From Amphiura filiformis (taxonomy: Eukaryota > Echinodermata > Ophiuroidea > Amphilepidida > Amphiuridae), in the NCBI RefSeq assembly GCF_039555335.1, contig NC_092629.1, forward strand, positions 3,677,912-3,741,911: 64,000 bases of DNA, given 5' to 3'. The notes under the pieces are model-generated. The model saw nothing but the letters and a program-made list of their open reading frames with translations, had not been told where the DNA came from and made no database searches. Both the position numbers and the translations under genes were made by a program. Positions 10,152-50,829 of the stretch are shown here, piece by piece; the first letter of the stretch is position 1, and each line of letters opens with the position of its first letter.

Positions 10152-10441
10152 CTAAAGGTTCCATTTTTCTTCTAGTATTTCTTTTGCGTCACGAAAGCCA
10201 CATTCACGAAGAGCATCAAGTATCTTCCGTCTCGTAGCCTTTCGCCCATTTGTCTGTCGCCAGAATCGTAAAACCGTAATTGATTGGAGTTTGACGTCAG
10301 AGGTGCAAGCCCCAAATTTGGCTGATTCAACTTCAGGTGAAGGGATTTCAAGTTCTGTAAATAGCTCCGTGAGATTGTCTGATGTAAGGTTAGCTTTCCC
10401 CACTACAACTTTGATGTCTAAATCAGACACTTGCTCCATAC
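10152..10441 (-). CDS. Terminal exon of UBL-ZU5-UPA-Death gene: Death domain
   Basis: Ninety-five codons and a TAG stop encode a Death domain, a six-helix homotypic interaction fold used by signalling adaptors. Diagnostic residues are LTELFTELEIPS, then VLRFWRQTNGRKATRR and ILDALRECGFRDAKEILEEKW, the last two helices with the conserved Trp and ATRR. The upstream side reads TTATGTTTAG|GT with a long pyrimidine tract (TTTCTTTATGTTTCTTACACC), a good 3' splice site at 10442-10443. The first two exon bases (GT) complete a Gly codon begun by the final G of the exon at 31006, so phase 1 meets phase 1. The preceding intron is about 20.6 kb. I read it as the last exon of the gene whose other exons are at 31.1, 46.3, 49.3 and 50.7 kb. 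Similar Death domains occur in UNC5, PIDD and ankyrins. Orthology is not settled. Confidence 0.85.
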
Positions 10442-10480
10442 CTAAACATAAGAGGTGTAAGAAACATAAAGAAAGAAATT

Positions 10481-10665
10481 CAATTGATCTTTTCGGTAAA
10501 TCCCATATGCCTATGCTGTTAGACCTGTGATGTCATCACGCCGAATCGGACATCGTTACTGCGTAATTCAAGGTTTTGAAATGAACTGTAACGATGTTCG
10601 CTAAACGATGTGACATCTCAGGTTTACCCGGAAAGGTTTATGGGATTTACCGCAAAGATCAATTG
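10481..10665. mobile_element. 185-bp MITE with 27-bp inverted ends, next to the Death-exon acceptor
   Basis: Ends 10481-10507 (CAATTGATCTTTTCGGTAAA...) and 10639-10665 are inverted copies with one mismatch in 27. A second, weaker inverted pair lies inside. It is non-coding. It sits about 40 bp upstream, in gene sense, of the Death-exon 3' splice site, so it abuts the pyrimidine tract and probably occupies the branch-point region. Confidence 0.8.
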
Positions 10666-10794
10666 GAAAGCAATGTTGCGCTTGATGTGGCCTGTGGTTT
10701 TCAACACTGATTTAGCAAGAAATATTATTAGAAGACCCAGTCCTCTGGTTTGAAATACAATTAAACATGAGTTTATGTATTTAAAAGAATATAT

Positions 10795-11062
10795 AAGTCA
10801 TATATATTGTCATATCAAGGGTTTAAATGTTTGGTTATATAAAGGGTATAAAACGTTTTAATAACATTCATTAAACATTTTTGAAAACGTGATACAAAAC
10901 ATACCAACATAACGTTATTTAACTGTTTTTAACAAGTTTGCCCAAAATATTCTATAATAACATTTTTAAAATGTATTCATGATCTTTATATAGCCCGACA
11001 TTTAAATGTTATTAAAACGTTTTGAAAAACCATTTAAGAATACTTTTGTGTTTGCTGGGATC
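10795..11062. mobile_element. Fragment of the CCCAGCAAACAC MITE family
   Basis: The internal motifs GGTTATATAAAGGGTATAAAACG, TTTATATAGCCCGACATTTAA and the right end GTGTTTGCTGGGA match the better preserved copies at 33.5-34.2 kb. The left terminal repeat is missing, so this is a truncated copy. Dense AACGTT-type palindromes are typical of the family in this window. Confidence 0.75.
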
Positions 11063-11338
11063 CAGAAACTAATTTTGTTTACTTGTAACTAGTTATAGTA
11101 ACTTTTAATTAGTATTTTGCTAAAGCTGATGCCATCATCACTGCTTTCACTTTAGTGTTTAGTCGCAAATGTCCTGCCTGGTCCTGTTTGGCACTTGCAC
11201 TGTCCTGTCCCTTATTTGTAGTCTTGGTGACCATACATTTCGAGTGTTACTCTTTTTGGTCTCCCACCAACGTTTTCTTATATTATTATGTTTGTATTGT
11301 GTGGTGAAAATAGTTTGTCCAGACTTAAGGAATCGGAT

Positions 11339-11892
11339 AGCAACGTTTGCACAATATATGTTTGGGACCTGAGAGCACATCAGCCACACCATATTGCATT
11401 TTGAATACGAGGAATGTCCTGATATTAAATAATTTTGATAATTTTGACTTTCGCGATATAATACAAATTTTATGGCAAATATTAAAAATTGATATTCTTC
11501 ATATTTTTGATATTTAACAGTCATGAAAGTAAACTTTACAAATCTAATGATATGTACTTAAAGCGTATTTAGCTGGGAGGAAAAGCCGTCCATGATATGA
11601 AAATGTTGACCTTTCGTATTAAAGATTACATTTTTGCCCAAAAAGACTAACATTTTTGTGTCTTGGGGGATGTGAAAGGTCAAAATTTTCAAATGATGGA
11701 CGGCTTTTCCTTCCAGCTACATACATTTTAAGTACATATCATTAGATTGATAAAATTTACTTCGAGGACTGTTAACTGTGAAAATATCAATTTTAATAAT
11801 TTACAATAAAATTTGTATTATATCGCGAATTTCAAAAATGATGTGTCTAAAGTGCTCTCATGTCCCACAAAAAATACTATGCAAACGTTGCT
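11339..11892. mobile_element. 554-bp imperfect foldback element
   Basis: The sequence folds on itself around position 11640. Paired blocks from outside inward are AGCAACGTTTGC / GCAAACGTTGCT, GAGAGCAC / GTGCTCTC, CGCGATATAATACAAATTTTAT and its inverse, AATGATATGTACTTAAA and its inverse, and GGAAAAGCCGTCCAT / ATGGACGGCTTTTCC. It is non-coding, and the short frames within it are artefacts. It is a foldback or MITE-type element in the last intron of the UBL-ZU5-UPA-Death gene. Confidence 0.8.
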
Positions 11893-12505
11893 AATAATAT
11901 TTAACCTTTGGAGCTTATTAGAGAGATTGCAATTTCCAAACGTAGGTATCGGACGTACGTTGATCTATTCAAAACCACTCCCTGTATCGAAGCGAGGTCA
12001 CGTATTTAGCCAGTTTTGAACATTTTCCACGTGCGAAATAAACGTAGATACATCGTTGAAAATGCACAAAATTTGTCCATTTCACAATATTTTAAAGACA
12101 GTAAAGGATAATGAACATACGAAGGAAAGTGTAATTATTATAATGATCCTTTTTGTTTGTAACAAATCTTTGTAATAAAGGTACAGCGATGTGTTAAAAA
12201 TTGACTAAATATTATACGCGATGTTCATACGCAGAGATTGTCCATTGAAATGTGTGTGATACTTGGCGTATAAAAAATGACATTGTGATTTCACATATTG
12301 GACTCCAACGTAGCATTAAAACTTACGTGCCACGTTGAAATATGCTGATTTTGCCTCATGTCGAAGTTCATGCAGCGCGCCCAATTGTCATGACGAAAAA
12401 GTCTCATTTTTGAAAGTAAAGTCATGATATATGGATGTAGTGATCCTAAATCTACCAAAATATATGTTTTTGGGCAACTATACTATTTGGGGAGCACAAA
12501 AAAAT

Positions 12506-12563
12506 CACTATGCCCTCTATTGACCTAGATAAAATCTGATATAGGTCAATTGAGGGCATAGTG
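12506..12563. repeat. 58-bp hairpin
   Basis: CACTATGCCCTCTATTGACC (12506-12525) is answered by its inverse ending at 12563, with one mismatch over 22 bp and a 14-bp loop. It may be a miniature transposon remnant. Confidence 0.75.
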
Positions 12564-12841
12564 AATACTACAGTCTTTATTCCAGGCGCCTTGTTCTCCG
12601 TCGTGACGAATGAGCACAATCCAGTTTGGAACCGAGACTAGCAATATTTAACACCGTATTAACGTACGTAAAAACGTACGTTAAAACGTACGGGCTACGT
12701 GCTGCGTATGGAACGTCGCAATCTCTCTATTATGAACCATGTAAAGAAAAAAATACTCAGTTATATCCGTGGAGCTAGTTAATTAGAAACGGTCGGCCCT
12801 TTGTTTTGAAAATTGAACCTTGCAAATCCGGGCAAACGGAT

Positions 12842-12987
12842 TTTGTAGTTTTAGAGTTTTAGAGCTAGCCTTGTCAGCGCAAGCCTTGTTTGCTCCGTGG
12901 GGCCCATACTAGATGACCTACATGTATGGGCCTATTTGTGAATGATAATGCTATTTTATAGGTTAAGAAACAGTATCCTCCGTATAT
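12842..12987 (+). repeat. Composite repeat block X, copy A, left part
   Basis: The sequence from TTTGTAGTTTTAGAG through CATACTAGATGACCTACATG to CCTCCGTATAT matches 20543-20681. The match stops exactly at the left end of the transposon at 12988 and resumes at 15416, after its right end. This block is therefore the left half of a repeat that was split by the insertion. Confidence 0.85.
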
Positions 12988-15415
12988 GGTCGAATCCAAC
13001 CAAAAGTGTCCACGGGCCAAAAATAAAATTCCGAAATAAAAATGTCTCCACAATTTTTTCCTTTTGCCCATTGATTGATGACATATTGGCCTTATAGGAA
13101 CCAAAAGTGCCATTACTAATCTTGAAAAATAAATCCAGGACGTGTGATAGTAAATGTGATATCAAAACCCAATGTTACCTACGAATACCACTAGGATGCT
13201 TTCACTATCGCAATACTAATCAACCTAAAACAAATGGAATATTCCCATTAACGCTTTTTTCGTGTAATGTAGACCACAGGGTGTCAGGAAAATGCTAACT
13301 CGACCAGAAAATATTTATTTTTATTTTTATAACGAGATCAATATGATCTTAGTCAATTTATGCTAGTTTATTTTTGAAAATGAAGTTTAGGTCAGTTTCT
13401 GTATTTTATCTATCAAGTGAGTATGAATCAATTTACACATTGTATAAGAACAAGTATGATATATGTTTTTCAAGAATATTAGGAATTATACGCATACACC
13501 TAACGCTTTATACAATGAAAAGGTGAAGAAACCCGGGTATTCGTAGGTAACATGAGCGATTTAACAATATCTGTATTGAGTTTATAGGTTTAAATTTTGC
13601 TATTATGGTAATGAATTAATAAAATGGTAGTTTTTAGATCTCTTTCAGATGGTATGTCCAAATGAATAAATGCTTTTACCTTAGATCAAAAATTTTTGAT
13701 GCTTTTAGCAAGATTTTGACCACTTCATTTTGATATACAAGTAGTAAATCAGCAATTTTACATAATAAATAATTGTTGAACGAATCCGTATATGGGTAAT
13801 AATAGTGTCCTGGGGTACCGCTTAAAGTTTTTGACAATTAATTTTCATTGGCAGGGACACTTCATTACACATGTCATGTATTATGCTGTATTCGTAAGTA
13901 ACATTTCAGTATTTGTAGGTAAGAATTAGACTTTTGGTGGATATCGCAATCAAAACGTCATTTTATAAAGCACTTTGAATGTATTATTTTCTTTATGTGC
14001 GTTTATTGATACTTTAGACCCTATCATGTATTAATAATGCCGGTTCACAGCGGTTGAAAGAGGATTGAAGTAAGAAACAAAGGCACTAAAGTGACTTTAA
14101 TTTGCTTAATTGCACACAAATCGCTTAAAACCGTTATTGCAGACTTGTGAAGTCCATCTTGGAGTCAGTTACGCCTTGTGGCCTTTCGTTTGAGGGCAAC
14201 TACAATTAGCTTTATACCAGGGTCCATCAATGTGTTGTCTAGATCATGAGACAATGAGAACAGTCGTTTTTCCATGGTATTCGTAGGTAACCTTAGCGAA
14301 AACGTCAAAAGTTACCTTCGAATAAATCAATTTGGACACAAATTACTCAGAAACCAGAAGGTCGGTAAACATTTAAAATGAAGCACACATGACAGTTGAC
14401 AAATCCAAGTATTTATCCCTTCTAATCTTCTTTGAATCTGATTTTTCTTTCAAATGACCAGACCGTCGTCTATTTCAGTACATATTTTTCACCAATTAAG
14501 CCGTATTCAGTTTTGCATGGTGGGCATGTATGAGAATTCACAACTTTCATTGACATATGATTTGATAGCAAACATAAAGGCCTTCGTTATGTACCAATAT
14601 GGGCATTGGCATGAATGGCAGTGTTTCACAATACTGTCATGATGTCAAAGTGTATTCGTAGGTAACATTCGGTTACCGAAATTTACCTACGAATACTTGC
14701 TTTTATTGTTGACATCTCAGAAATATTTAAACGCAGGTTATTGAAACTTGGTAGAAATAAAGAGTGTATTACCCTGCACCTATTGCTTAACTATTGTTTA
14801 CTATTCTCTCACTTTGTGGAAATGGCACAGCTTTTAACATGTATTCGGAGGTAATGCATATTTTTACCAAACCTACCTTTGTGCCATTTAGAATTTCTGG
14901 CAGCTAAACACAATAATAAAGATGTCCGAATGCAATGCATTTCAGTATTGGACATATCAAAGCTTGTATCAATTGCGCATTTATTAGTGATTTCCATTTT
15001 TTAAAGATATATCGAGTGCTATGAAAAATTGTATTCGTAGGTAATGTAAAAAAATACCACTCAAAAAATTATCACAAAAAATTCATAATTATGTACAAAT
15101 ATGTGAAAAATTGAACAGGCAATCTTTGAATACACACCTTTCAGGAAATCAATTTAGATTCAATCCAATGACTTCTTTTCATAACTGATTTAGATGTTTT
15201 AAAAATACTTTAAGAAATATTTTGAAAAAATGTGTAAAAATAGCATGTTTTGGGTTCTCTGTGTCTAAGTTTTTTCACAGAAGGGGTCTTATTATATATG
15301 GCGCGAAGCGTATGATCAAGGCGAATAAACACAATACAAAAACGAATGCCAATTGATTAATACTTTTAAGTTATGGCCCTGAACATGCCGTGTACACTTT
15401 TGGTTGGATTCGACC
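12988..15415. mobile_element. 2.4-kb non-autonomous DNA transposon with 28-bp inverted ends and spaced GTATTCGTAGGTAAC motifs
   Basis: Ends 12988-13015 (GGTCGAATCCAACC...) and 15388-15415 are inverted copies with one mismatch in 28. ATAT flanks both sides (12984-12987 and 15416-15419), consistent with a 4-bp or TA target duplication. The paralogous sequence near 20681 reads straight through the site without the insert, an empty-site proof. No long reading frame exists inside. The interior instead carries the motif GTATTCGTAGGTAAC or its complement at 13174, 13537, 13888, 13909, 14277, 14311, 14652, 14682, 14841 and 15031, with main spacings of 351 to 389 bp. It is non-autonomous, and the superfamily is unknown. 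Confidence 0.85.
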
Positions 15416-15620
15416 ATATATGATTACATTTGGGCTTCTGTGACCCTTGACCTTTGACATCTGGCTAGGGCGACAATTGGCAAAATGCACATCTTCGGTG
15501 TAGGGCCCTTAGCTGACCAAAACTAACACCTATAATAGCTGCTGCATGTTATTATATGTTGCCGTTTTGCATCGTAAAATAATTAAGCTTTGAATACGGA
15601 ATTAAAGAACAAGAAACTTT
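15416..15620 (+). repeat. Composite repeat block X, copy A, right part
   Basis: ATGATTACATTTGGGC through TGTTGCCGTTTTGCATCGTAAA matches 20682-20841. It contains TGACCTTTGACATCTGG, a degenerate DR1-like receptor motif that is better preserved (TGACCTTTGACCTC) in copy B. It continues the block interrupted at 12987. Confidence 0.8.
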
Positions 15621-15633
15621 TTCTATTGTCTTT

Positions 15634-15925
15634 ACGGTTCAGCGTGTGGCAGAAAAAAGGACAAACCATATGTAGCTTATTAGCATTACCTCGTTTTCTT
15701 CCTGACCGGCTGCTTGATGGCATTTCCGTGAATGCTTCCATATGATCTGAAACGACCAAAAGCTTTGCATCACAAATCTGGAATCATAATGTTTATACTG
15801 AATAGCAATGAAATGTTAGCAAAAGATCCTGTTAAAACAAACGAGTTAGATCTGTTAGTTAGATGATGCGCAAAATGTTTTCTACGAATTTAAGGCAACA
15901 TGGTCATCTTATTCTTTCGCTAATA
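15634..15925 (+). repeat. Composite repeat block Y, copy A
   Basis: GGTTCAGCGTGTGGCAGAAA, TTACCTCGTTTTCTTCCTG and AACAAACGAGTTAGATCTG match copy B at 21236-21262 plus 22072-22315. In copy B the block is split by an 0.8-kb insertion. It is non-coding. Confidence 0.8.
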
Positions 15926-16535
15926 TTGATTTAAGGAGGCTGTGTACTCTCAGACATGCATGTAGTAAAAGTGCAATAACTTTGTAATTATTCGCGCAAG
16001 ACATATAAAAGTATACATTTTTATAAAGGCAAGACATCAATAAATCTTAATATAAATACAGATTTGGGGTAAAAACAACAATTATGAAGAAAATCACAAA
16101 AAAACACTCTTTCCAAAATATTTTATTTTGTTTTAGCTCAATCTTGAGGCTCCATTCCAAAAACGTTTTTTTTTATATATTTTTTTTGATATTGGCCTTA
16201 GTTTTTGAGATATTGACCATATAAGGCATCAAATTGAACTTTTTAAAATTAACAAACGCCGATTTGCACAAAATGAAGCCTAAAATCGGAAATAGACCAA
16301 AATATAAAAAATGAGAAACCGTTTCTTGAGTCGATCATGCTTTTTACGATGATCATACTTGCTTACCTATAGATGCTGTATTTTATTGAGTTATCGTGTA
16401 CCTAAATCGTCATTTTACCGAGAAAATGAACATTGAAATAATGGCCGTTGAAGTTTAAAGTGGTCACATTTTGCCCTTTCATCGAATCTCACAGGAGAAT
16501 GCGGCAGTTTTCGTTTATTTACCTTATATTACGTA
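15926..16535. other. Intronic sequence without recognised feature
   Basis: AT-rich sequence with no reading frame over 60 codons, no inverted termini and no tandem array visible. It lies between blocks Y and Z of composite repeat copy A. No counterpart was noticed in copy B. Confidence 0.4.
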
Positions 16536-16925
16536 AACATCGGGTAAATCCACAGCCCCTCGAGAAGTTTGAGCGAAATCCATTCATAACTTGATATTCA
16601 AATCGAGGGAAAGAACTTGAAAAAACCCACATTTTATCAGCTAAAACGGAGCCATTTGACCACTTGGAATTAGTGTTTCCAAAGGATGCGCCACGCATGC
16701 AGATTAGCGTCGCGTATGCGTAGCGTATCTGTGCGTTAACAAATTGCGCGATACGCAGCGCGATGCGTTGTTGCGCGCGTGTACCCCGCTGATCCAACAA
16801 AGATTTTCTCTCTTTTAAAATTGCAAACACGAATGAAATAGTGAAATAAAATCCACAAAATAGCGCAGTTGGAGTTTATAAATCTGGATTTTCTTTCCTT
16901 GTATTTATAAAAAACATAACAAAGT
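16536..16925 (+). repeat. Composite repeat block Z, copy A (interrupted by a LINE)
   Basis: AAATCGAGGGAAAGAACTTG through CGCGCGTGTACCCCGCTG to TGAAATAGTGAAA matches 20868-21147. The block resumes after the LINE at about 19360 (AAAAAGCTCAATTTTGCGAA, matching 21179). It is rich in GCG-containing CpG steps compared with its surroundings. Confidence 0.8.
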
Positions 16926-19358
16926 AACAAATATCAGATCAAATAAAGACAGACTCTATAAAAAATATATCTCTAAACCCACTGTGGAGAATAAACTGAA
17001 ATATAATAAATATAGAAACTACTTAAACTCACTGCTTCGTACCTCAAAGAAACTGCATATCACATCCGAAATTGAATTTCACAGTCATAACATGAAAAAA
17101 ATGTGGCAAACTCTAAATAAACTCTTAGGTAGGAATAAAAAAACGAAATTTCCTGATTTCTTTACTGATACCGTTAACGGTCATAAAGTCACTAATAATA
17201 AAGACATTGCATTGAAATTTAATGATTTTTTCACAAATATTGGACCATTATTGGCAGAAAAATTCCGGAACCCGATAATAATTCCCCGTCAACCTTCAAT
17301 GACTTTTCAAACAACAAAAGCCTCTTCCTTTCTCCAACATCAATTGAGGAAATTATCAAGCTCTCTTCCAAAATTAACAACACCTATAGCTCTGGTGCAG
17401 ACGGAATAAGCTCCAATCTTCTAAAATCAATCATCTTCGAAATAAGTATTCCTCTCACCCACATCTTCAATTCATCTTTATCATCCGGTATTGTACCCTC
17501 AAAACTAAAAATTGCTAAAGTCACACCCATTTTTAAAGCAGACGATTGTCACAATTTCTCTAATTATAGGCCTATATCAATTCTACCTTCAATATCAAAA
17601 CTTCTTGAAAAAGTTATTTATAATCATATTTTAAATTTTATTTCACTTCATGATATTCTAAGTCCTCATCAGTTTGGTTTCCGGCCACAAAGATCCACAT
17701 ATATGGCCATTAATGAGCTTTATTGCAAAATTGCAGAAAACCTTGATAAAAAGCATCATGTTGCAGGCATTTTTCTTGACCTCAGTAAGGCATTTGATAC
17801 CTTAAACCACAACATCCTCTTGAACAAACTCGATCATTTGAGGGCCTGCTTGAAAAGCAGTGCTTGTCACTGAAGCAGTATTACCCTCAATAAAGAAAGA
17901 ATTAATAATAATAATAATAATAATAATTATGGTATCAGAGGTCTGGCCAATACATGGATTCGAAATTATCTCAGTGATAGGAAACAATGTGTGGTATTTA
18001 ATGAAGCAGTTTCTCCTCTCACGAATATCACCTGCGGAGTTCCACAGGGGTCAATTCTTGGTCCCTCCTCTTCTTATTATATATTAATGACCTTCCCTGT
18101 GTTCCAAAATCCCACATTTTATCCTTTTCGCAGATGATACCAACATACTTTTCTCGCATGAAGATCACCATCACCTCGAATCAATCATTAATGCTGAGCT
18201 TATTTTAATATCAAATTGGTTTAAATTAAATAAACTTTCACTAAAAAAAAAAAAACTAATTATATGCTTTTTAAAAATAAATACAATAATAAATCTGAAA
18301 TCAATATAAAAGTACTAATAGATAATACAGAATTAAATCTGGTTCATACTACCAAATTTCTAGGCCTACTTATTGATGATAACCTCAGCTGGAAATCACA
18401 CACTACACACATCACTAAAATTGTGTCAAAATATAATGGTATTATACGTAAAGTCCGCCCTTTTCTACCGGAGGCCTCTTTGCAAACCTTATATAATACA
18501 CTTGTGCTTCCCTATTTAACTTACTGTGCAATTGTCTGGGCAGATAAAAACAACGCCAATCTGGATTCTTTTTCTCCTACAAAAACGAGTTGTTAGGACG
18601 TGCACAAATTCTTTGTGGCTCGCCCACACTGACCCACTTTTCCACCAATTAAATGCCCTTAAGATCCATGACATTTTCAAATTTCAAACAGCATTTTTAT
18701 GCATAAATTTCATTACAAAATGCTACCAAATGACCTCTACGACAACTTCTTTACTACTAATGACGACATCCATACACACGATACCAGACATTCTAAAGAC
18801 TTTCACATCCAATTATTTAATACGGTTTTTGCTAGCAACACCATCAAAACACATGGTGCTCTCCTCTGGAATGATCTTGACCAATCCCTTAAACTCATCC
18901 CGTCTCCTACAGTATTTAAAAAACATTCAAACAAAACCTCATCAATGGATATTTACATGATGATGTTTAAAGTGCTTTCTCCTGCATGATGGATTTACAT
19001 GCGCTGCTTTAGTTCGCATTTTATGCTTCATTGATTTTTCGGACTTTATGTTGTCTGTCTATGGCATTCATAGAATTTGTAACCTTATAAATATCGAATA
19101 TTGTATTTAAGCTATAGACTTGTCTGTAACTTTCAAATGGGTGCCACAACTTTACACGCTTTGCGTTTCTGTGGCATCCACATCTCTCATACCACATTGT
19201 TAAAATATTATTTTGTAATATTAATATTGGTATCTCAATTATAAATTATTTGGCATTGCATTGTTACTAATTTATTACAAAATGTTTTTTTTATATCATG
19301 TTATTTATATGTATGTGTGTTGAGATGAAAATAAAACTGAACTGAACTGAACTGAACT
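16926..19358 (+). mobile_element. 5'-truncated LINE (CR1/L2-like) with (CTGAA)n tail, inactive
   Basis: The plus-strand reverse transcriptase is spread over several frames. A 141-codon N-terminal piece (16984-17409, MKKMWQTLNKLLG...NDFFTNIGP) is followed by NYRPISILPSISKLLEKV, FLDLSKAFDTLNHNILLNKL, CGVPQGSILGP, FADDTNIL (about 18125-18145), FLGLLIDDNLSW (18264-18596) and a C-terminal segment to 18989. There are frame shifts at 17409, around 18060 and at 18585, and a 90-bp insertion at 17838 splits the palm domain. The 3' end is ACTGAACTGAACTGAACTGA, a short tandem tail typical of L2/CR1-type elements. It is inserted in block Z of the composite repeat. Confidence 0.9.
17838..17927 (+). mobile_element. 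Very short LINE 3'-tail insertion inside the LINE reverse transcriptase
   Basis: The host LINE reads CTCGATCAT then TATGGTATCAGAGG once this piece is removed. The insert carries GAGGGCCTGCTTGAAAAGCA, CACTGAAGCAGTATTACCCTC, AATAAAGAAAG and an (AAT)n tail. The same hairpin-like 3' end is found in the LINEs at 7.8 kb and, more diverged, 33.4 kb. It is therefore an extremely 5'-truncated second LINE copy. Confidence 0.8.
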
Positions 19359-19655
19359 ATCAAAAAAGCTCAATTTTGCGAAAGAAACAACGTCTTGTGT
19401 ACACAGCCGCGTTAAACAAGTTTACGATTTTTCTTTGATTGTTCACGCTGTCAGAGATTGTTCGGGTGATTCAGACTCTTCCAGACCGACCCTACTTGGT
19501 AATTCCGGCCACCCGTAAAACACCACAATATATATTATATGTTATAAAGTATTGATAGACCTACACATTGTTTTCATTTTGCAATCTCACATTATTTTAC
19601 ACCCAAATCCAGGTGTTTACCGAATGTGAAGGTATTTAAACAGTAATAAGGCCTA

Positions 19656-26879: not shown

Positions 26880-29868
26880 TAATATGTGATTGGACACTAC
26901 GAATAAGCCGTAAAGTCGGCAAATTGTACCCTGAGTTACAGTGTAAAATGTGCGTGACGGTCGTATTCATAGGTACCTCTATTTGGTGCGACAAGTATCT
27001 CATCAAACACTGTTTAAATCAATCAATAATACTATTGCTGAAAAGGATAATAAGCTTCTACCTATTTCTATAGAATCCTTAAATAGTTCTTGTCTTTGTT
27101 TGCTTTGGCTAAATCCTGTTCAAGTGGGGATAACAAAGCATTGTATTTTGTCTAGGTATGTATAACCAACAATTAACAATGAGAGGTCATTTTATTTATT
27201 TATTTATTTATTTATTTATTAAGGTATAAAGCAATCCAGAAAGCAGGTCACAGACCTGATACGCCTGGGTAACAATTAAAAACATGTATAAAAACAGCAT
27301 ACAAAGCAACAACAAAATGCATACAATAGCATAACATTCAAAGGCAAAAATCACAGATTATTAAGACGCTGAACAACTTGAGGAATGGTAGATTGCATGT
27401 ACATGGTTCGCTTACAGCGAGGAGGATCAATCTGCTGGGCATACCTAAGATTCCTACTGTGCCGATCACCTTTGGATTTAGGCAGCACTTGAGAATGTTT
27501 AGCAGACGCTTGCAAACCTTGGCCAAATCGCACCAACAGCTGATCTCTCCTCTCACATAAAGAAAACCAAACCTAGTTTCTCCAAAGCAGCCCGATAAGA
27601 TGTGTAGCTCTGGCCCAGGATGATACGACACGCCCGCTTCTGGACGAGCTCCATCTGCTCAGACTGTGCTCTGGAGATACTAGTATGCCATAAAGGGCTG
27701 GCATATTCCATGATAGGCCGAATGTACATTTGATAAACTGAAGATAAATCATCCCACGAAGCATTGAAGCGTCTCAAAACATATAGCATATACATTCGTC
27801 TAGAGGCGCGAGATATCATTGAATTGACTTGAGTAGTCCAACTAAAATCACTTTCTAAGGTGATACCAAGAAGTTTCATATTCTGAGTGACATCTAAAAC
27901 AGATCCATTGAGAGTCAAAGGATTGAAGGAATGCTCCTTTTCAAAAAACTGATGTGCATAATATGACATTTGGAAGGTTTTGGTAGCATGTCATTTTTGT
28001 TGCACCACTCACCTAAACCATCAAGATCTTTTTGCAGTTGTGAACAACCACCTGTCTTAGCATTTACAACTTCACCAAACGTCAGGTCATCAACATATTT
28101 CCATTTCAGGGGGGCTTCGGACGCAGCATCATTGACCATGGCGGAAAAAATAATCGGACCAAATTTAGTGCCCTGAGGCACTCCCCCCGAAATAGATTGA
28201 CATGCTGATGACCTGCCTTTGATTCTAACAGATTGGGTGCGATTACACAAAAAGCTACTAATGACAGGAATAATACTTGGGCGAATACCTATATCAATTA
28301 ACTTCTGAACAGCAATATTGTGATTAATCCTGTCAAAGGCTTTGGTAAAGTCAACAGCACATAAGGTTGCATAATGGCCAGCCTCATCAATACCTTTAAG
28401 GACCGTGTCTACAACATCCACTAGGTAGTGAGTAGTAGAGCTGTCCTTCACATTACCGTACTGCTGTTTATCAATGTGAGGGTAAAAGTCGACCATAGTC
28501 CACTCAGCCAGAAAGCTCTCAAAGATCTTACCGTTGAGGCGGGTAAGGCTGATAGGCCTTAGTTGATCAAGGCTTTTAGCATTAGGTGTTTTAGGTATCG
28601 GAGTTATTGATGAGGTTTTCCATACTGCTGGGAACACACCTTGGTTTAAACAACAATTAAATATGTGAGTTAATGGCTCAGTTAGTTCAAATGCAAACTC
28701 CTTTGTGACTCGCGGTGGAATGTCAGCCGGATGCGTGGACTTGTTAGACTTAATGTTACGTAATTTTTTTTAAACTTCACCAGGTAATATCCGCGGCGGA
28801 GGTAGAGTAGGGCAATAAGCGGACAGGTTCCTAAGATCAATCGGGGGTAACTGGTTACAAATATCAGCAACATGATTGTAGATTGCTTCAGCGATAATAG
28901 GAGGATCCTTTGAGATTCCATCGATCTCTATGGTCTTTGCAGTGGATTTTCCTCCAGCTATGTTTTTAACATATTTGTGCCATTTACCCGGTTGGTTACA
29001 ACGCAACCCATCGATGTTCTTATTGTAAAAGCTGTTTTTTGCGTTGACTATCTCGCGTTCCACTTTATTACGTAACTGTTTATAGGTGTCCATATTCGCA
29101 CACATATAGGCTTTCTGACGCTGGTCTATAAACCGCGTTATGGATTCAGTCAGCCAGGGTTTGTCATCCTCCCTGTGTTTGACACATTTCTCAGGAAAAT
29201 GAGTATGGAATTTTTCCAACAAGAGTTCTTCCAAAACAGATGCCCAAAGCTGAGAATTGAAGAGTCAGTTAAAGGACGCACATACGAACGATCAGCTTTA
29301 GGTTTGCGAACTTGTTTGTTTGGGTGTAAGGCAACACAACAATGATCGCTCTTACCAATGGCAGGAAGTTTATCTGGGTCTTGATAAAACGAATGGATAT
29401 CAGTGACAATTTTATCAAGGGTGGCATCTTTCCTCGTTGGAAAGGTAACAAGCTGGCTCATGTTGGCATGACATTCCACAAGAGATGTATTAAATTCATT
29501 AAAATCACCCAAAATAATGATGGAAGCATTCTTTTCAGATCTCAAACTATCAATTGTGTTTACCAAATGCTCTTGACGCTTTCAGAACCTCGTTGACTTG
29601 GGGATGATTTGAAATGACCGCCAAATATGACCGTTTCATATTTATTACCAGAAATGTGGAAAATGAGACACATGTAGAACCGAACAAAGGTACAATTTTG
29701 TTGAAGGAACAGAGTTCAACAAAACATAACCCCGCTTCTGGATATCGTTTGAAGTCAAATGATATACCATTTTAAAGCTTATGATATATATTTTCTAAAC
29801 ACGAAATAAAACAAAATTGACCGAGGGCCGACTTTACGGCTGATTCGTGGTGTCCAGTCACATATAGT
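26880..29868. mobile_element. Inverted-repeat element split by a LINE
   Basis: ATATGTGATTGGACACTACG followed by AATAAGCCGTAAAGTCGGC (26882-26920) is matched by an inverted copy at 29828-29868 (GCCGACTTTACGGCTGATTC...CCAGTCACATA). The two arms flank the LINE at 27174-29610. The simplest reading is a small DNA element into which the LINE inserted, though two separate copies in opposite orientation are also possible. Confidence 0.5.
27174..29610 (-). mobile_element. LINE with endonuclease remnant and reverse transcriptase, frameshifted
   Basis: Minus strand. The distal piece of an APE-type endonuclease is at 29566-29150 (IIILGDFNEF, GKSDHCCV). A linker frame (29234-28770, FIDQRQKAYMCANMDTYK) follows, then a reverse transcriptase frame at 28637-27915. 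This carries PISLTRLNGKIFE, AVDFTKAFDRINHN, GGVPQGTKFGPIIFS and KYVDDL as the catalytic block. The thumb/C-terminal frame is 27969-27553 (MKLLGITLESDFSWT...MYIRPIMEYASPLWH). The tail is a TAAATAAA repeat near 27190-27220. The 5' end is lost and frames change at 29200, about 28750 and 27950. The YVDD and GTKFGP forms mark it as a different LINE lineage from the YADD elements at 7.8 and 34 kb. Confidence 0.88.
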
Positions 29869-31005: not shown

Positions 31006-31186
31006 CTGTGTCTTCACCGTCATGACCAATATATACAGGAATGTCCACTGGATGGTAGTTATAAATTTGCGAGACATGCACGATACCTGCTATGGGCAAG
31101 CTATCAGGTTTGTTAACACCTATTCTTAACTTGAAATCGCAGGACGAATTACGACCGTCCAATTGCATGTCAATTGTGGATATTTC
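31006..31186 (-). CDS. Internal exon of UBL-ZU5-UPA-Death gene: UPA, second part
   Basis: Sixty codons plus one base lie between TATTTTCCATTTTGCAG|GAAATA (acceptor, exon start 31186) and GACACAG|GTACTA (donor, exon end 31006). The reading begins EISTIDMQLDGRNSSCDFKL, followed by RIGVNKPDSLPIAG and HPVDIPVYIGHDGEDT, with beta-strand-like alternation expected for the C-terminal half of a UPA domain. In UNC5, PIDD and ankyrins this domain packs against ZU5 and the Death domain. Entry phase 0 matches the exit phase of the 46156-46382 exon. Exit phase 1 matches the Death exon, where G plus GT makes Gly. Its assignment to UPA rests on position between UPA-a and Death, because the sequence alone is too diverged to be certain. 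Confidence 0.72.
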
Positions 31187-38474: not shown

Positions 38475-38489
38475 TACACACAGAAAGTT

Positions 38490-43785: not shown

Positions 43786-43789
43786 ATAT

Positions 43790-44630
43790 TGAATAATAAT
43801 CTTAATTCTAGAATATTAAAGTTATCTTTGAGTGCATGACACAATGCTAGTCCCAGTGTTTGAAATTTAGATTTTGAGCATACTTTGAGAGCGGTATATG
43901 GCTTTTTTTTTTTTGCATTTGTCAGTCAGGTTTACAAGATTTTGGTGGCCATCTTGGATTTTACCACTTACCCTGAAATATTAAATCTTTCTTTGAGTGT
44001 CTGACACAAGGCTACATAGTTCCAGTGTTTAAAATTTACGTTTTTAGCATATTTTGAGAGCGATATATAGCTTTTTTTTTTGCATGTGTCAGTCAGTTTT
44101 ATAGGATTTTGGCGGCCATCTTGGATTTTACCACTTACCCCGAATCTTTCTTTGAGTGTCTGACATAAGGCTACATAGTTCCAGTGTTTGAAATTTACAT
44201 TTTAGCATATTTTGAGAGCGATATATAGCTTTTTTTTTTGCATGTGTCAGTCAGTTTTATAGGATTTTGGCGGCCATCTTGGATTTTACCACTTACCCCG
44301 AATCTTTCTTTGAGTGTCTGACATAAGGCTACATAGTTCCAGTGTTTGAAATTTACATTTTTAGCATATTTTGAGAGCGATATATAGCTTTTTTTGCATG
44401 TGTCAGTCAGTTTTATAGGATTTTGGCGGCCATCTTGGATTTTACCACTTACCCCGAAATATTAAATCTTTCTTTGAGTGTCTGACACAAGCCTACATAG
44501 TTCCAGTGTTTGAAATTTACATTTTTAGCATATTTTGAGAGTGATATATAGCTTTTTTTTTGCATATGTCAGTCAGTTTTATAGGATTTTGGCGGCCATC
44601 TTGGATTTTACCACTTCCCACGAAAAAAAA
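43790..44630. repeat. Satellite of five ~160-bp units
   Basis: Each unit contains TTTGAGTGTCTGACA, CCAGTGTTTGAAATTTA, AGCATATTTTGAGAGCGATA, a T-run and GGCGGCCATCTTGGATTTTA. The last phrase falls at 43951, 44118, 44276, 44432 and 44598, so spacing is 156-167 bp. The first unit is the most diverged. It is non-coding. Confidence 0.9.
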
Positions 44631-46155
44631 AATGAAAACATCTTTTTTCCCATTATTTACCCCCACAAGAGACAAAATCAAGTGAAAGTTTGCTTTTAAC
44701 ACCGAAATCACACGACTCGACATAGTGCTGAGCACTATTAGAAGTTGTGTTACCTGTATAGTGTGTTGTTACCACCTACCTTGCGACCCAACCAATACCC
44801 AGGAATAGGATCTAAGACACAAAAGACTTATTGTGTAAAATAGCAAATAGCCCAGAGAAAACAAATATCCCAGTGGCGTACCGTGGCCGCTCCTGCCCCG
44901 GGGGGCTGAAGAAAGTTCAATTTTGCCACCCCTTCCTCAACAGCCCGAAAAGGCTGACCAAATTTTTTTTTCGGTGGTTTATATAGGTTTATATAGGCGC
45001 TAGCGCCCTAAAAGCAACACATTTTCATGTATAGTACCATTTTGTCACAAATTTTTATACTTTTTCAAATTTTTTCCGCCCTTTATTCTTTACTGATTCT
45101 TTTTGCCGCCCCTTCTTCTTCCCCCGCCTCTCTTTTTGCCACCCCTTCGTTTTGGCTGCCCCCCCCCCGCTTTTACCCCGGGGGGCTCGCGCCCCCAAAG
45201 CCCACCCCCACCCCAAGAAAATACGCCCATGTATCCCGGACAAAAACTAGCCAGACCACAATTTAGTGTAATTTGTTTACTTTAGTGATAATGCATGCAT
45301 CTAGCATCTGTATAGAAAACTATTCAACAAAATAATTTGAGATATTGCCAAAATGCAGTATTCCGAGTGCAGTATTCCTGAAACCCATTGCTTCCAAATA
45401 AAACTTCTTTTTAAAAAGGAACGGGGCGTCTAACGGAAAATAGCATCTGTTGGGCTGATACAGTGCACATTTGATGTCATTTTCTTCGTAGTATCGTAGT
45501 AGTAATGGCCAAATTTGTTTCCTGTAGGTGACTTAAAAACCTAAATGCAAAATGAGGTTTTTTGAAAATTATTTTCCATAGTCAAGATGCAACTATCATT
45601 TATGCCTGAAATCATTTATTTATTGTCAAATCAGTGCAGAGTAGGTTCGTATATGAATATTGATGTTAGATCAAAGTAACTCAAAGTACTATACACCTGA
45701 TCCGTGAACTTTGTTTTTTAAAGACAAATTCTTGTAAAACATGTTTGTGTTTACTGAGGCGTCGCATTTGCAGTACCCCCCCCCCCCTTCACAAACATGG
45801 ATTCGCCCCTGCCTAAGCTTATCTATACAAAGCAACTGTAACCCTGAAAATCTTCTTACCCAAGTTCAAACTTTACATATTTTCCAAATGCCCAAAGACA
45901 CACGTTGCAACCAACTTGACAGATGACATATCTTCAAAGTCAAAGAGATGAATTTATTGAAAACTTTAATTTGTCCTTCAATGGATTCACATAATTTGTG
46001 ATCACGACATTCGTTTTATGACATGAACTGTTTATATAATTATGTGGGTGTGTGGGGGTGGGGCTGGGTGTGTGGGGGTGTGGCGGGTGTGTGTGTGTGT
46101 GTTCTTAGGTTTTTTGGGGGTTGGGCTAAAATAAAGCCAATGATTACAGTCTCAC
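44631..46155. other. Intronic sequence with C-rich patches
   Basis: CCCCC-rich stretches occur at 45100-45225 and 45775-45790, and a GT/GGGGTG-rich stretch at 46040-46105. No reading frame has a recognisable domain. It lies directly downstream, in gene sense, of the UPA-a exon donor. Confidence 0.45.
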
Positions 46156-46382
46156 CGTTGCTTGGTGTTTTGATACCACAAAGACCGTTAATGTCCTCTC
46201 ATACGCTGAATACATGCTATTAGAAACGTATGGTAAAATATGCATTGTCAGTGAAGATAGCCCGAAGATACACCATATACATAAGTGATCTATACGTAGC
46301 TTTATCTTATTTTTCAACACTACTACGTTAGGATCCGATATCCCGCTTTCCCCATCAAAGTCAAGCTTCCATTCATTGTCAC
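46156..46382 (-). CDS. Internal exon of UBL-ZU5-UPA-Death gene: UPA, first part
   Basis: An exon without its own ATG, bounded by TTTTTGTTCACGCAG|GT (acceptor, start 46382) and CAAGCAACG|GTGAGA (donor, end 46156). It carries two bases plus 75 codons. The reading DNEWKLDFDGESG is followed by VVVLKNKIKLRIDHLCIWCI and a C-terminal ERTLTVFVVSKHQAT. The Trp-containing opening, then the basic strand with DH and a hydrophobic xWxI stretch, resembles the UPA domain that follows ZU5 in UNC5, PIDD and ankyrins (their DHF/RHF-W pattern). The leading GT completes a Gly codon with the last G of the ZU5 exon, a phase match. Exit phase 0 matches the exon at 31186. The frame would stop five codons into the intron, which also supports the donor. 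Confidence 0.82.
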
Positions 46383-47240
46383 CTGCGTGAACAAAAACAA
46401 AATACTAAAAGTAGGTCTACATATTAATAAGAGCTTTCTGTCACAGTGTTGTTATTATTTAAGCATTTTTACATAAGGTCTCGAATCAAAATTCGAAATT
46501 TCTCAAATTGCTCAAATTGTAATAAAACCATTACCAAATATTATTACCCCTCTGGTAATAAGGATTCCAAATGTATCTATCAATCTGGAGTAATTACTGA
46601 AACGGTCGAAGGTCAAGATTTAGGCTCCACATATGGGCAAAACCAGAAAATGTCCAAGTTTGATGAAAATGGTCTCAAATTGTTTATCTTGATGAAGTAA
46701 TCCAGAAACAGAATAGTTTGCACTATGTAGGACTTTTGTTACCATGGAAAAATATTAAACTAGATACAAGCCGCCGGTCAGGAAATAACATTAATTGTGT
46801 AAAATACACCATAGGTGTCTTCTACACATTTTATAATATTGACCTGCCACTAATGGACCAGCTGCTACTATAGAGCCAAGTATATAGCCAAAAATTACCT
46901 ATTTTGCACCATTTTACAGGGCACCGGAAATGACCTCAAATGACCTTTGACCCCAATTCTGCGTAATCACATTAAAAGCTTGTTAATGACAATACACATA
47001 TGCAAGTGGGGTCAACAAGGTTGCATATTAGAGATAAGATTTTTTTAGCAATTTTGCCATTCCAAGCCACTACGAGGTCAAAGGACATACAACAAAGGTC
47101 AAACTGTATACACCCTGAATACCCATGCAAGTAGTGACCAATGCATCAATAACAGCTTGATTTCATGTTGTTTGCGGAAGAAGAGGCCAGGAGAAAGAAG
47201 AAGAAATCAAAGACTAACTAGATCTAGCTATAGATCTGAG
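46383..47240. other. Intron between ZU5 and UPA-a exons, proximal part
   Basis: No gene features. TGACCTCAAATGACCTTTGACC at 46931 is another DR1-like motif in repeat context. The frame 46446-46700 has no recognised domain. Confidence 0.5.
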
Positions 47241-47259
47241 CCTAGCCGTTAAACAGAAA

Positions 47260-48070
47260 TGACCCATAAACTTTGACTTAACATGTTAAGAACGTAATAA
47301 GGATCATTGCTGTTGAATTTGAGCTCGATTGGAACAATTTTAAAATTTGACCTTTGACCCCTAAAATTTGATCTAGGGGTCATAAATATTTTTAGGATAT
47401 GAGAAAGGTTTTTAACACAAGTTTCCACATACATAATGACAGCCAGTAAAATATTTCACTGACCATCAAGGATTTGAACCTGTGACCTTCGGATCACTGG
47501 ACCGATGCTCTACCAACTGAGCTAATGAGTCAGATGGAGAAAAGCAGTGATGCTATTATATATAGGCCTTCAGTTTAAAATGTTTAGAATATCGTATGGA
47601 ACATTCCTTTTGAATTTGAGCACGATTGGACCAATTTTAAAATTTGACCTTTAACCCATAAGTTTTGACCTTTGGGTCACAATTATTTTTAAAATGTTTA
47701 GGATGTCACAAGGATCATTTCTGTGCAAGTGGCATCAACATGCTACGGTATGTTGATTGTAGCAGATGTCTTACATGGGGCAAACTATTCTTTTTGGGAT
47801 TGTTTTACCGAGATAAACAATTCGAGACCATTTCCATCAAAATCGAAAAATGTTTATGTTTTGTCCCGTGTGGATTTAAAATGTTGACCTTCGACCTATC
47901 CCACACCCAACTCTGTATAAAGGTATATTAAATTGTAAAAAAATCAAATGGTGTGTCCGTAGATAGGTATATAATTATTGAATCCTTATGACCATAGGAA
48001 TATTTAAAAGTAGATTTTAACCAAATCGGAACAATTGTGAATTTTGACACCTGTGTAAACTTTAACCCTG
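47260..48070. repeat. Diverged tandem repeat (~290-400 bp) with DR1-like motif, containing a tRNA-like insert
   Basis: The phrase GAGCTCGATTGGAACAATTT followed by AAAATTTGACCTTTGACCCC occurs near 47320 and again near 47615 (GAGCACGATTGGACCAATTT). Weaker versions near 47865 and 48012 follow. These are copies of one unit. The tRNA-like sequence at 47461-47531 separates the first two. Confidence 0.6.
47461..47531 (-). tRNA. tRNA-like sequence (degenerate or SINE head)
   Basis: Minus sense has TTAGCTCAGTTGGTAGAGCA (A box, perfect D arm) and GGTTCAAATCC (B box). The anticodon arm is TCGG/CCGA around a CCAGTGA-like loop, without the usual T33. The T stem and the middle of the acceptor stem mismatch. 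It looks like a once-genuine tRNA or the head of a SINE, and is unlikely to be functional. Confidence 0.5.
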
Positions 48071-49074
48071 GATATCTGGGAATGCCAAAAGGTGACCATT
48101 TGACACCTGTTATATTCTTATTCAATACACATCAGATATGAACATAAAAAATAGGTCATACCTAAATTGACACGTATTTATACGTCATATTTTCTGCAAT
48201 TATTATCATGTTACATAGTATTATTTGTACTATACAGAATCGTATATTTTGTACCTATTATACATTTCTTACATAGTATTATTCTATATCACACTGTATT
48301 TTATGCCTACTGGCAGGTATAAGATATGAAATACAAGTAGTATTTGAAGTCACGAAAAATCTTTGACACTTCACCTGACCTTCTATCATGGTGTCGTATT
48401 TGTCTGTGTGTTCGTAGTTGTGTCCACATGTGAAAAAAAAATGTCAATCTGCACAAATCAGACATAATGGTACCTAACTCCCGGCATATTTTTTTGATTT
48501 TATAAGTAGGCAACGAAAATCACAGAATATTGACTACTGTGTTAGAGTAAAGCACCACTGAATTGAAAATTGGGCAAGTCTTACTAAGGTTTAGTGACGT
48601 GGCCGGGAAATCGCGTAAAAACTTCGATATGTAAATTGTATAACAAAATGGTATACTATGGAAAGCCGATCATAACCCAACATAGGATTCGAGCTCTGTC
48701 TGCAGAAATTGCTCAAGCCAAGCTTTTAAAGCTTATTATAAGCATACTGGGCTGTATGAGGAGAAAACTAGAACAAAACAGAATGACGAAAAAGATCAAG
48801 GAAAAGAAAGGTCATTCCCAACAAAATCAATTTCCTCTTATAGCCCTTGGGTCGAGAAATAAGAAATTATGAATTCTTCTTCCCTGCCCCGATACAAAGG
48901 TTGTAATTAAAACGTAATTGATAAAATGTGTGTACGTGATGTTTTCAAACATATGCGGGTATATCTATACATGTAAATAATTTTCTAATGAGTGCCTGTT
49001 CTGTGGAAGAAAAACCGAATTGATGACATTCGTACTATACATGGAAAATAATAAGGAAATGAAACCATATATAC
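48071..49074. other. Intron sequence without recognised feature
   Basis: The 92-codon plus frame 48594-48872 is Lys/Arg-rich at its end with no domain and runs antisense to the host gene. A weak periodicity of ACATAGTATTATT occurs near 48210-48290. Nothing else was recognised. Confidence 0.4.
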
Positions 49075-49624
49075 CTGGAATTTCGGATTTGTACCAAACC
49101 TGAATATCTGCACGTGTCAAATCCTCTGCTGAATGTCCAACTGTCAACGTAACAGGTTTCTTGAATTTCTGTGAGTCAGGAGTCAATCGGACAATTGGTG
49201 CCACAAGAAATTTGTCGCCAAGCGACGGAAGATCAGTTTCTGTGTCTGGAGATATTATTGACATAGTTATGTAAACGTTTCTATTAAGTGCTCCTGAAGG
49301 TATATCCAAAGTCACAGGTCCACAGGACAGTTGAAGTTTTCCACCAGCTGATGTTAATCGCTCAGCAGTATAATCGATACCTTCCATTGCAGGCGAACCA
49401 ATCATGTCAAAGTATTGAGTTGTACTTGCTGCATTAATGGTTTTAAGATTCGATGGTAAAAATAAAACAAGCTGATTAAGCAAGTGCAAAGGGATCGTAT
49501 TATCTGTCGTCATGTCTTGTGTTGGTGCTCTTGGGTGGGTTGCTGTGGGGTGAGTTGGGTGGGGAATGTAGGTAGGGGTAAATTCATATGTCTGACTGGA
49601 CGAGGACCCTGAGCAGATTTCCAT
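49075..49624 (-). CDS. Exon of UBL-ZU5-UPA-Death gene: ZU5 domain
   Basis: The frame runs from ATG 49624 to a donor ATTCCAG|GTATAT (exon end 49075), 183 codons plus one base. Residues 1-60 are a Ser/Thr/Pro/His-rich linker. Residues 90-180 are a ZU5 domain, with AGGKLQLSCGPVTLDIPSGA, NVYITMSIISP, FLVAPIVRLTPD and KKPVTLTVGHSAEDL ... IQVWYKSE, which follow the family pattern closely. ZU5 is a beta-sandwich protein-interaction domain found with UPA and Death in UNC5, PIDD and ankyrins. The donor leaves one G that joins GT of the next exon to give Gly. The 5' boundary is less sure. AACATAAG|ATG would fit phase 0 from the UBL exon but has a weak pyrimidine tract, while CACCCCACAG|CAACCC inside the frame is a better acceptor but in another phase. 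Either the exon opens at 49624 or an unseen exon intervenes. Confidence 0.85.
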
Positions 49625-49780
49625 CTTATGTTGTTTTTAAATATCTATTTTGTGCAATAATAAGTAAATGCCCTCAATGGGTTGGAGGAGTCCTATACAG
49701 TCTTAATATGATCGTATTAATCATTCTACAACTGGTCTTAAAATGATCATATCAATAATTTAAGATTCGACGGTAAAAAA

Positions 49781-49934
49781 ATTTAAGATTCGATGGTAAA
49801 AATAAAACAAGCTGATTAAGCAAGTGCAAAGGGTTCGTGTTATCTGTCTTCATGTCTTGTGTTGGTGCTCTTGGGTGGGTTGCTGTGGGGTGAGTTGGGT
49901 GGGGGAATGTAGGGTAGGGGTAAATTCATATGTC
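49781..49934 (-). pseudogene. Partial duplicate of the 5' half of the ZU5 exon
   Basis: This 154-bp stretch is nearly identical to 49441-49592, about 340 bp away and in the same orientation. It covers the Thr/Pro-rich linker up to the start of the ZU5 domain. It has two extra bases in the CCCTACATTCCCCCACC region relative to the exon, which shift the frame and lead to a stop, so it is not a usable alternative exon in the same frame. It is a local segmental duplication inside the UBL-ZU5 intron. Confidence 0.85.
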
Positions 49935-50587
49935 TCTCTTTTGTTTTTGACAATGTGATTTGCACTGTGTTTAGACTATAAATGCTTTGATGTGTTTATT
50001 CCAAAGTGTTTAGTTTAGTTTTATAGGTGTTTAATTTAGTGTTTATATGTTGAAAGGGGTATCCTCTTTTTATGATATGGTTCAATAGAAACAAGGGGCA
50101 GTCAATAAGCTCGTAGAGCAAGATGCTTGAAAGAGTACCAGATACATTATTTTTATCCCCTTTTGGACATGGTCACTGCATAATTCTGTAGGGATTGTGT
50201 GGTCGGGAGTTGTGTGTAGAGGAGGGCAGGGTGGTTGTGAAGGGGATTTGCACCTGTGACACACACTGTAATATTCAGCTTTTTTTTCTCAATCTTGATT
50301 TCCGCTTTACCATTTTGGACAGTATATGAGAGTTCTTTATAATACTACATTAATTTTCAAAATTCCTATTGAAGGTACTCAGTTGTTGCTTCTCATGATA
50401 TAGAATTTCTCTATAGGACTCACCCTCTATGTCTAATATGGTTTAATTTGCTATTTTATAGCCTCATACCCAATTTATTTGAAGATACAGATCCATTTAA
50501 AAATGATTTCCAGCAGTACCTGGAGTTGTAATTAAATTTCCGGCAAATAAGTTCACGCATAATAATGGAAAGGATTTTGCAACTTAC

Positions 50588-50829
50588 CAGAGCCACCACC
50601 CTGGCCATATTTATCAATTGTATGACAGATTCATCTCTTATTCCATAATAAGACAGTGTCCTCGAGTCATATCCCAAAGGTCTATCACCAACGATTAGAC
50701 GTTGATTCGTCGGTCGGATCCCGAACCTATAACCAAGTATTAACTTCAGCTCGCCGACCTTGGTGGAGGGCCGTACTTGAAAGTCGTCTATTTCATTAGA
50801 TAGAGTATATCTTACTTTAATAAGCATTT
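50588..50829 (-). CDS. Exon of UBL-ZU5-UPA-Death gene: ubiquitin-like domain
   Basis: Eighty codons lie between TATTTTTTCATTCCAG|AA (acceptor, start 50829) and GTGGCTCTG|GTAAGT (a consensus donor, end 50588). The reading MLIKVRYTLSNEIDDFQVRP, then STKVGELKLILGYRFGI, PTNQRLIVGDRPL and RTLSYYGIRDESVIQL has the ubiquitin-fold pattern: two strands, a helix, the QRLI strand, then L..YGI...S.I.L. It lacks a C-terminal GlyGly, so it is a fixed UBL module and not a conjugating ubiquitin. The ATG two bases into the exon is the natural start if the upstream exon is untranslated. Otherwise the exon is entered in phase 1. It exits in phase 0, compatible with the ZU5 frame opening at 49624. Confidence 0.8.

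What the first reader, a model, noticed from the sequence alone, without database searches (positions are those of the whole stretch)
10152..50829. A host gene with ubiquitin-like, ZU5, UPA and Death domains spread over 40.7 kb
Seen: five minus-strand exon candidates whose splice sites and phases chain together. UBL 50829-50588 exits phase 0. ZU5 ends 49075 in phase 1. UPA-a 46382-46156 enters phase 1 and exits phase 0. UPA-b 31186-31006 enters phase 0 and exits phase 1. Death 10441-10152 enters phase 1 and stops. Both phase-1 joins create a Gly codon (G+GT). Known: ZU5-UPA-Death is the supramodule of UNC5, PIDD and ankyrins. Inference: adding a UBL at the N-terminus instead of LRRs, ankyrins or a receptor ectodomain gives an architecture I do not recognise, possibly an innate-immune or apoptosis adaptor expanded in invertebrate deuterostomes.
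Basis: partly seen in the sequence, partly recalled or inferred. Interest (0 to 1): 0.9.

Follow-up and report, generated by a model that had tools for sequence, protein, structure and literature searches.

The report
Brittle-star death-domain gene, ubiquitin-like exon
This stretch of brittle-star DNA holds one gene for a cell-death-type signalling protein, and a ubiquitin-like piece sits just ahead of it that may form its front end, an unusual combination if transcripts confirm it.

Summary
ZU5 to Death is real and is one gene.

The ubiquitin-like (UBL) exon looks genuine: Pfam ubiquitin 7.4e-13, splice sites among the strongest on the window's minus strand. But P0001 lacks it and starts at ATG 49405 inside the ZU5 exon. 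A better in-frame acceptor, 49471, gives 539 aa, but lies in a repeat whose other copy would truncate the protein.

UPA is not detected by sequence; the structure predictions failed.

Best reading: a PIDD/UNC5-like autoinhibited Death adaptor, with about even odds of carrying the UBL as its N-terminus. Self-cleavage at DHL|C with proteasome-driven release is the boldest reading left open.

The parts
50588..50827 (-). UBL exon, coding from ATG 50827, exits phase 0; acceptor puts the exon start at 50829, donor CTG|GTAAGT. Probable, not proven, 5' coding exon
   Evidence: Pfam PF00240 7.4e-13; 24/65 identical to human ubiquitin; donor rank 8 of 3597 GT, acceptor rank 9 of 3552 AG on the minus strand; only open 150-360 nt interval with both sites at 6 or more on either strand
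49406..49471 (-). candidate linker (22 aa) if the ZU5 exon starts at acceptor 49471; not in the annotated protein
   Evidence: acceptor rank 59 of 3552, in frame with UBL; the acceptor lies in a 123-nt repeat
49075..49405 (-). ZU5 exon, annotated start ATG 49405, exits phase 1
   Evidence: P0001 residues 1-111; Pfam PF00791 1.1e-12 for the exon translation from 49471
46156..46382 (-). end of ZU5 (DHLC at 46290-46279) and presumed start of UPA; exits phase 0
   Evidence: P0001 exon; DHLC place
   Evidence: P0001 residues 187-243
31006..31186 (-). presumed end of UPA, exits phase 1
   Evidence: P0001 exon
   Evidence: P0001 exon
   Evidence: P0001 exon; the two neighbourhoods share a 265-nt stretch at 91%
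10152..10441 (-). Death domain exon with stop codon
   Evidence: P0001 exon; Pfam PF00531 2.6e-7
49442..49564 (.). repeat copy that carries the in-frame acceptor 49471
   Evidence: 123 nt, 98% identical to 49782-49904
49782..49904 (.). second repeat copy; its equal-scoring acceptor 49811 would end the protein 19 codons after the UBL

Best explanation
This is one Amphiura filiformis gene on the minus strand for a ZU5-(UPA)-Death signalling adaptor, whose first coding exon is probably the UBL exon at 50827-50588, spliced to acceptor 49471 to give a 539-aa UBL-ZU5-UPA-Death protein. Shown: ZU5 to Death in one annotated protein; a ubiquitin-like exon with strong splice sites on the same strand about 1.1 kb upstream; an available in-frame junction. 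Inferred: the junction is used; the UPA fold is present; at rest ZU5 packs on UPA and Death as in UNC5B; the UBL (no C-terminal Gly-Gly; ubiquitin's L8 and I44 kept, V70 replaced by Ile) docks ubiquitin-binding partners such as proteasome receptors, which opens or removes the N-terminal half, so that UPA clusters the Death domains and recruits a downstream Death partner.
For: P0001 rebuilt exactly from seven window exons. Pfam ubiquitin, ZU5 and Death above curated cut-offs in the 539-aa product. UBL donor rank 8 of 3597 and acceptor rank 9 of 3552 on the minus strand; the only open interval of its kind in the window. Of 63 AGs scored between 50520 and 49300, the best score (3.9) is shared by 49811 and 49471, and 49471 is in frame with the UBL and open into ZU5. 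UBL against human ubiquitin: 24/65 identical. UNC5B supramodule autoinhibition: PMC8897508, passages. UPA clustering, and release of the C-terminal fragment after proteasomal removal of the N-terminal fragment, in NLRP1/CARD8: PMC7794386, passages.
Against: The annotated protein lacks the UBL and begins at ATG 49405. Acceptor 49471 sits in a duplicated repeat, and its twin 49811 would truncate after the UBL. An acceptor 2 nt before the UBL ATG implies an upstream exon that I did not identify. No Pfam UPA hit and no meaningful PDB sequence hit for that stretch. Human ubiquitin used as a tblastn query did not find the UBL exon at E 5, so the likeness is at profile level. No transcript and no orthologue were seen.
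Confidence: 0.5

Rival explanations
1. The protein is just the annotated 437-aa ZU5-UPA-Death adaptor. The UBL exon is an upstream open reading frame or 5' leader exon, a separate short unit or a relic, and is not translated in frame with ZU5. If spliced to acceptor 49428, the UBL frame ends in a TGA that overlaps the ZU5 start codon (ATGA), which would be a two-cistron mRNA.
For: P0001 starts at ATG 49405 although the frame upstream is open to 49636 with in-frame ATGs, which fits a transcript whose ZU5 exon begins downstream of them; 49428 lies just outside the repeat.
Against: 49428 scores poorly (rank 990 of 3552). The UBL exon's strong donor needs a partner. No separate protein with this UBL was found: no candidate of about 72-229 aa shared three words with it, and the joined query (lengths about 244-777, candidates capped at 8000) found only P0001; longer or unrecorded proteins are not excluded.
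Confidence: 0.42
2. UBL is included only in some transcripts: alternative promoters or acceptors give a UBL form and a UBL-less form, or a short 99-aa UBL protein via the twin acceptor 49811. This overlaps the best explanation and shares its probability.
For: Two equal acceptors in the repeat copies, one in frame and one truncating; annotated UBL-less start.
Against: No transcript seen; one protein record only.
Confidence: 0.25
3. The UBL exon belongs to a different gene that merely lies upstream.
For: The acceptor just before the ATG suggests that the exon is not transcript-initial, so it has unknown upstream exons.
Against: Its donor would have to skip a 40-kb same-strand gene or use an exon within about 1.1 kb. 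The UBL exon as tblastn query found only itself in the window; the human-ubiquitin query was too insensitive to count.
Confidence: 0.08

Closest known systems
PIDD1 (LRR-ZU5-ZU5-UPA-Death)
   Same: ZU5 then Death at the C-terminus; a UPA-size region between; His in the ZU5/UPA boundary motif (HFS in PIDD, HLC here, placed by eye)
   Different: no LRR and a single ZU5 in P0001; Leu-Cys in place of Phe-Ser; autocleavage untested
UNC5B cytoplasmic part (ZU5-UPA-Death; PDB 3g5b)
   Same: same order; ZU5 matched at E 0.0063; Leu where CARD8 has the cleavage-site Phe (PMC3210808, passages; my placement here is by eye)
   Different: no receptor ectodomain domain in P0001; possible UBL; presumed UPA not matched by sequence
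Ankyrins (PDB 4d8o, ankyrin-2)
   Same: best PDB sequence match of P0001, E 1.2e-5, through ZU5 and a very weak Death stretch
   Different: no ankyrin repeats found; one ZU5
NLRP1/CARD8 (FIIND)
   Same: ZU5-UPA before a death-fold domain; model for N-terminal removal releasing the C-terminal signal
   Different: CARD instead of Death; SF/S site instead of HL-C
Ubiquitin-like domains inside larger proteins
   Same: Pfam ubiquitin family, no C-terminal Gly-Gly
   Different: I found no UBL-ZU5-UPA-Death protein or in the listings; none of these is exhaustive

Membership tests
ZU5-UPA-Death supramodule proteins | ZU5 domain | tested here: met
   Pfam PF00791 8.9e-12 in P0001, 45.6 bits against cut-off 21
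ZU5-UPA-Death supramodule proteins | Death domain at the C-terminus of the same protein | tested here: met
   Pfam PF00531 5.9e-6, 26.8 bits against cut-off 22.6; same annotated protein
ZU5-UPA-Death supramodule proteins | UPA domain between them | tested here: inconclusive
   No Pfam hit at E 10, one chance-level PDB hit; length and place fit; model pLDDT 31.7, unusable
ZU5-UPA-Death supramodule proteins | ZU5 packed against UPA and Death | not testable with these tools
   model of P0001 unusable
PIDD1 | N-terminal LRRs and two ZU5 domains | tested here: not met
   Pfam finds one ZU5 and no LRR in P0001 or in the 539-aa product
PIDD1 | HF|S autocleavage site between ZU5 and UPA | tested here: inconclusive
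   DHLC at 46290-46279: His kept, Leu-Cys for Phe-Ser; placed by eye, no alignment computed
UNC5 receptors | extracellular domains and membrane span | tested here: inconclusive
   no ectodomain domain hit in P0001 or the 539-aa product; membrane spans not tested; unknown upstream exons
FIIND proteins (NLRP1/CARD8) | C-terminal CARD | tested here: not met
   Pfam gives Death, not CARD
Conjugated ubiquitin-like modifiers | C-terminal Gly-Gly | tested here: not met
   UBL exon ends ...MARVVAL
UBL-ZU5-UPA-Death as one protein | UBL spliced in frame to ZU5 | tested here: inconclusive
   in-frame acceptor exists, annotated protein lacks the UBL

The most novel reading that the evidence does not exclude
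A Death adaptor with a built-in proteasome handle: the N-terminal UBL recruits the proteasome, the ZU5 cuts itself at DHL|C with a cysteine in place of PIDD's serine, and removal of UBL-ZU5 frees the UPA-Death fragment to cluster and signal, an NLRP1-like 'functional degradation' switch without a separate ubiquitin ligase.
Probability: 0.08. Interest if true: 0.8.

Novelty: new variant of a known kind. Interest (0 to 1): 0.42.

Why it matters
ZU5-UPA modules hold death-fold domains silent until the N-terminal half is moved or destroyed. A UBL fused to such a module would tie that release directly to the ubiquitin-proteasome system and suggest how N-terminal sensors of this family are swapped in evolution. 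Without the UBL this is one more invertebrate ZU5-UPA-Death adaptor. The question turns on a single splice junction, so one RT-PCR could settle it.

Tried and rejected
Acceptor 49591 (rank 183 of 3552) is possible but weaker than 49471. Structure prediction of the UBL (mean pLDDT 49.7) and of P0001 (31.7), each from a single sequence, failed, so I made no fold search. NCBIfam: 0 families for both proteins. Homologues: the joined 444-aa query, 8000 candidates scored (a cap), 1 protein; P0001, 4663 candidates, 1 protein, itself; UBL, no candidate sharing three words. This tool sees only relatives with shared exact words, so absence is weak evidence. Human ubiquitin as a tblastn query against the window found only one chance match (E 3.6) and missed the UBL exon itself, so it says nothing about other ubiquitin-like stretches. 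The bacterial promoter/terminator scan has no meaning for an animal gene and is not used. Searches use a splice-site table that I recalled (human-like), not one trained on brittle stars: five of the six confirmed donors were scored (0.6 to 4.9) and five of the six confirmed acceptors (-0.1 to 7.4, the lowest being 15746); donor 15690 and acceptor 22145 were not scored, because I scored neighbouring positions before the exact boundaries were known. No confirmed donor that was scored reaches the threshold of 6, so that scan is strict and is not an exon finder. Papers: PMC8195603, PMC3210808, PMC8897508, PMC7794386, PMC11637483, PMC2575513 and PMC11310086 were seen as passages only; all others as search listings. 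The searches for UNC5CL and for 'functional degradation' with UBL gave nothing on this architecture in their listings.
Full report
What is there. The window is animal DNA. A protein search with the joined reading found one protein, P0001, 437 aa, named by NCBI 'uncharacterized protein [Amphiura filiformis]' on a contig of 97,728,240 bases. tblastn places it on this window in seven main pieces at 95-100% identity, the shortfall lying at splice edges, and a script reproduces it letter for letter from seven minus-strand exons: 49405-49075, 46382-46156, 38120-37950, 31186-31006, 22145-22089, 15746-15690 and 10441-10152. A. filiformis is a brittle star. I do not know whether the NCBI model rests on RNA reads or on prediction alone.

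Exon 38120-37950 (57 codons) lies between 'UPA-a' and 'UPA-b'. Two 57-nt exons (22145-22089 and 15746-15690) lie between UPA-b and Death; they are duplicates, their neighbourhoods sharing a 265-nt stretch at 91%, and each adds SSSRSGRKR.

Domains. Pfam on separate pieces: ubiquitin 7.4e-13 for the UBL exon, ZU5 1.1e-12, Death 2.6e-7. P0001: ZU5 8.9e-12, Death 5.9e-6, nothing else up to E 10. The PDB sequence search of P0001 gave 12 sequences up to E 10, led by ankyrin-2 (1.2e-5), with other ankyrins and UNC5B 3g5b at 0.0063. UPA is not found by Pfam; the PDB search of that stretch gave 1 hit at E 1.2, a ribosome-bound protein, taken as chance. UPA is inferred from place and length. Single-sequence models were unusable.

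The UBL question. The exon has an acceptor (TTTTTATTTTTTCATTCCAG) 2 nt before its ATG and a CTG|GTAAGT donor. With a recalled splice-site table, its donor ranks 8 of 3597 GTs and its acceptor 9 of 3552 AGs on the minus strand of the window, and it is the only open 150-360 nt interval on either strand with both scores at 6 or more. It aligns with human ubiquitin at 24/65 identities; by that alignment ubiquitin's L8 and I44 are L9 and I45 here and V70 is I72 (that these form ubiquitin's binding patch is recalled), and there is no Gly-Gly end. Human ubiquitin as a tblastn query did not pick the exon out of the window at E 5, so the likeness is clear to a profile and modest to a single sequence. 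I take it as more than chance.

Its link to ZU5 is open. The annotated protein starts at ATG 49405. Of 63 AGs scored between 50520 and 49300, two tie for best at 3.9: 49471, in frame from UBL into ZU5, and 49811, which would stop after 19 codons. Both are the same site in two copies of a 123-nt repeat, 98% identical. So the best in-frame acceptor is repeat-borne. Against that, four confirmed acceptors rank 3, 54, 41 and 77 of 3552 and 49471 ranks 59, so it is as good as those; a fifth confirmed acceptor, 15746, scores only -0.1, and the sixth was not scored. A third site, 49428 (rank 990), would put the UBL out of frame, ending in a TGA that overlaps the ZU5 ATG (sequence). Several in-frame choices exist (49624, 49591, 49471), so phase agreement alone is weak evidence.

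How it most likely works. In UNC5B, ZU5 binds UPA and Death and keeps the receptor silent until ligand opens it (PMC8897508, passages). In NLRP1/CARD8 the module cuts itself between ZU5 and UPA, and proteasomal removal of the N-terminal fragment frees UPA-CARD, where UPA lowers the threshold for filament formation (PMC7794386, passages). PIDD1 is cut at S446 and S588, the latter between ZU5 and UPA (PMC11637483, passages). The PIDD motif is HFS; Ser, Thr or Cys can be the nucleophile in such reactions; the CARD8 Phe corresponds to Leu-677 in UNC5B (PMC3210808, passages). Here the stretch KLRIDHLCIWCIFG (DHLC at 46290-46279) sits at that boundary by eye: His as in PIDD, Leu as in UNC5B, Cys as a possible nucleophile. 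Autocleavage is thus possible but not predicted with confidence: Phe to His severely impairs it in CARD8, and a Leu there was not tested in the passages I saw. If the UBL is part of the protein, the natural role is docking of ubiquitin receptors or the proteasome to the N-terminal half.

Novelty. ZU5-UPA-Death is a known kind. Fusions of the UPA-ZU5 module to other death-type adaptor domains (DEDD2-clade TRADD-N), and lineage expansions of those adaptors in marine invertebrates including echinoderms, are in print (PMC8195603, passages), so a new partner for ZU5-UPA in a brittle star is not out of character. UBL-ZU5-UPA-Death itself was not found in the protein searches or in the paper listings; those searches are limited, so I claim only that I did not find it. 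The interest is moderate until a transcript is shown.

Noticed in passing
22145-22089 and 15746-15690 (minus): Two duplicated 57-nt exons, each coding SSSRSGRKR, both kept in the annotated protein; a linker that can grow by exon duplication.
   Followed up: partly
50893-50947 and 51050-51104: 55-nt inverted repeat arms, 89% complementary, 102 nt apart, just upstream of the UBL exon; looks like a small mobile element.
   Followed up: no
47460-47531 (minus): tRNA-like match (Rfam 40 bits) in an intron that ARAGORN does not call; perhaps a tRNA-derived short repeat.
   Followed up: no
56786-57832 (minus) and 27915-28769 (minus): Reverse transcriptases: one with RNase H (RVT_1 1.7e-30, LTR type by its look) and one LINE-like by its look (RVT_1 1.5e-21); a second, partial copy of the first lies near 62-63 kb (translations compared by eye).
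   Followed up: partly
6584-7560: Long open frames in several frames on a short repeated unit, a minisatellite by its look; the tandem-repeat finder was not run.
   Followed up: no
52689-53300: Array of diverged short units of the type CATTTGGTCTAATA, partly on opposite strands.
   Followed up: no
805-1932 (minus): 375-codon open frame without a Pfam hit at 0.01; it looks like a protein-primed DNA polymerase of a Maverick-type element, by recall only.
   Followed up: no
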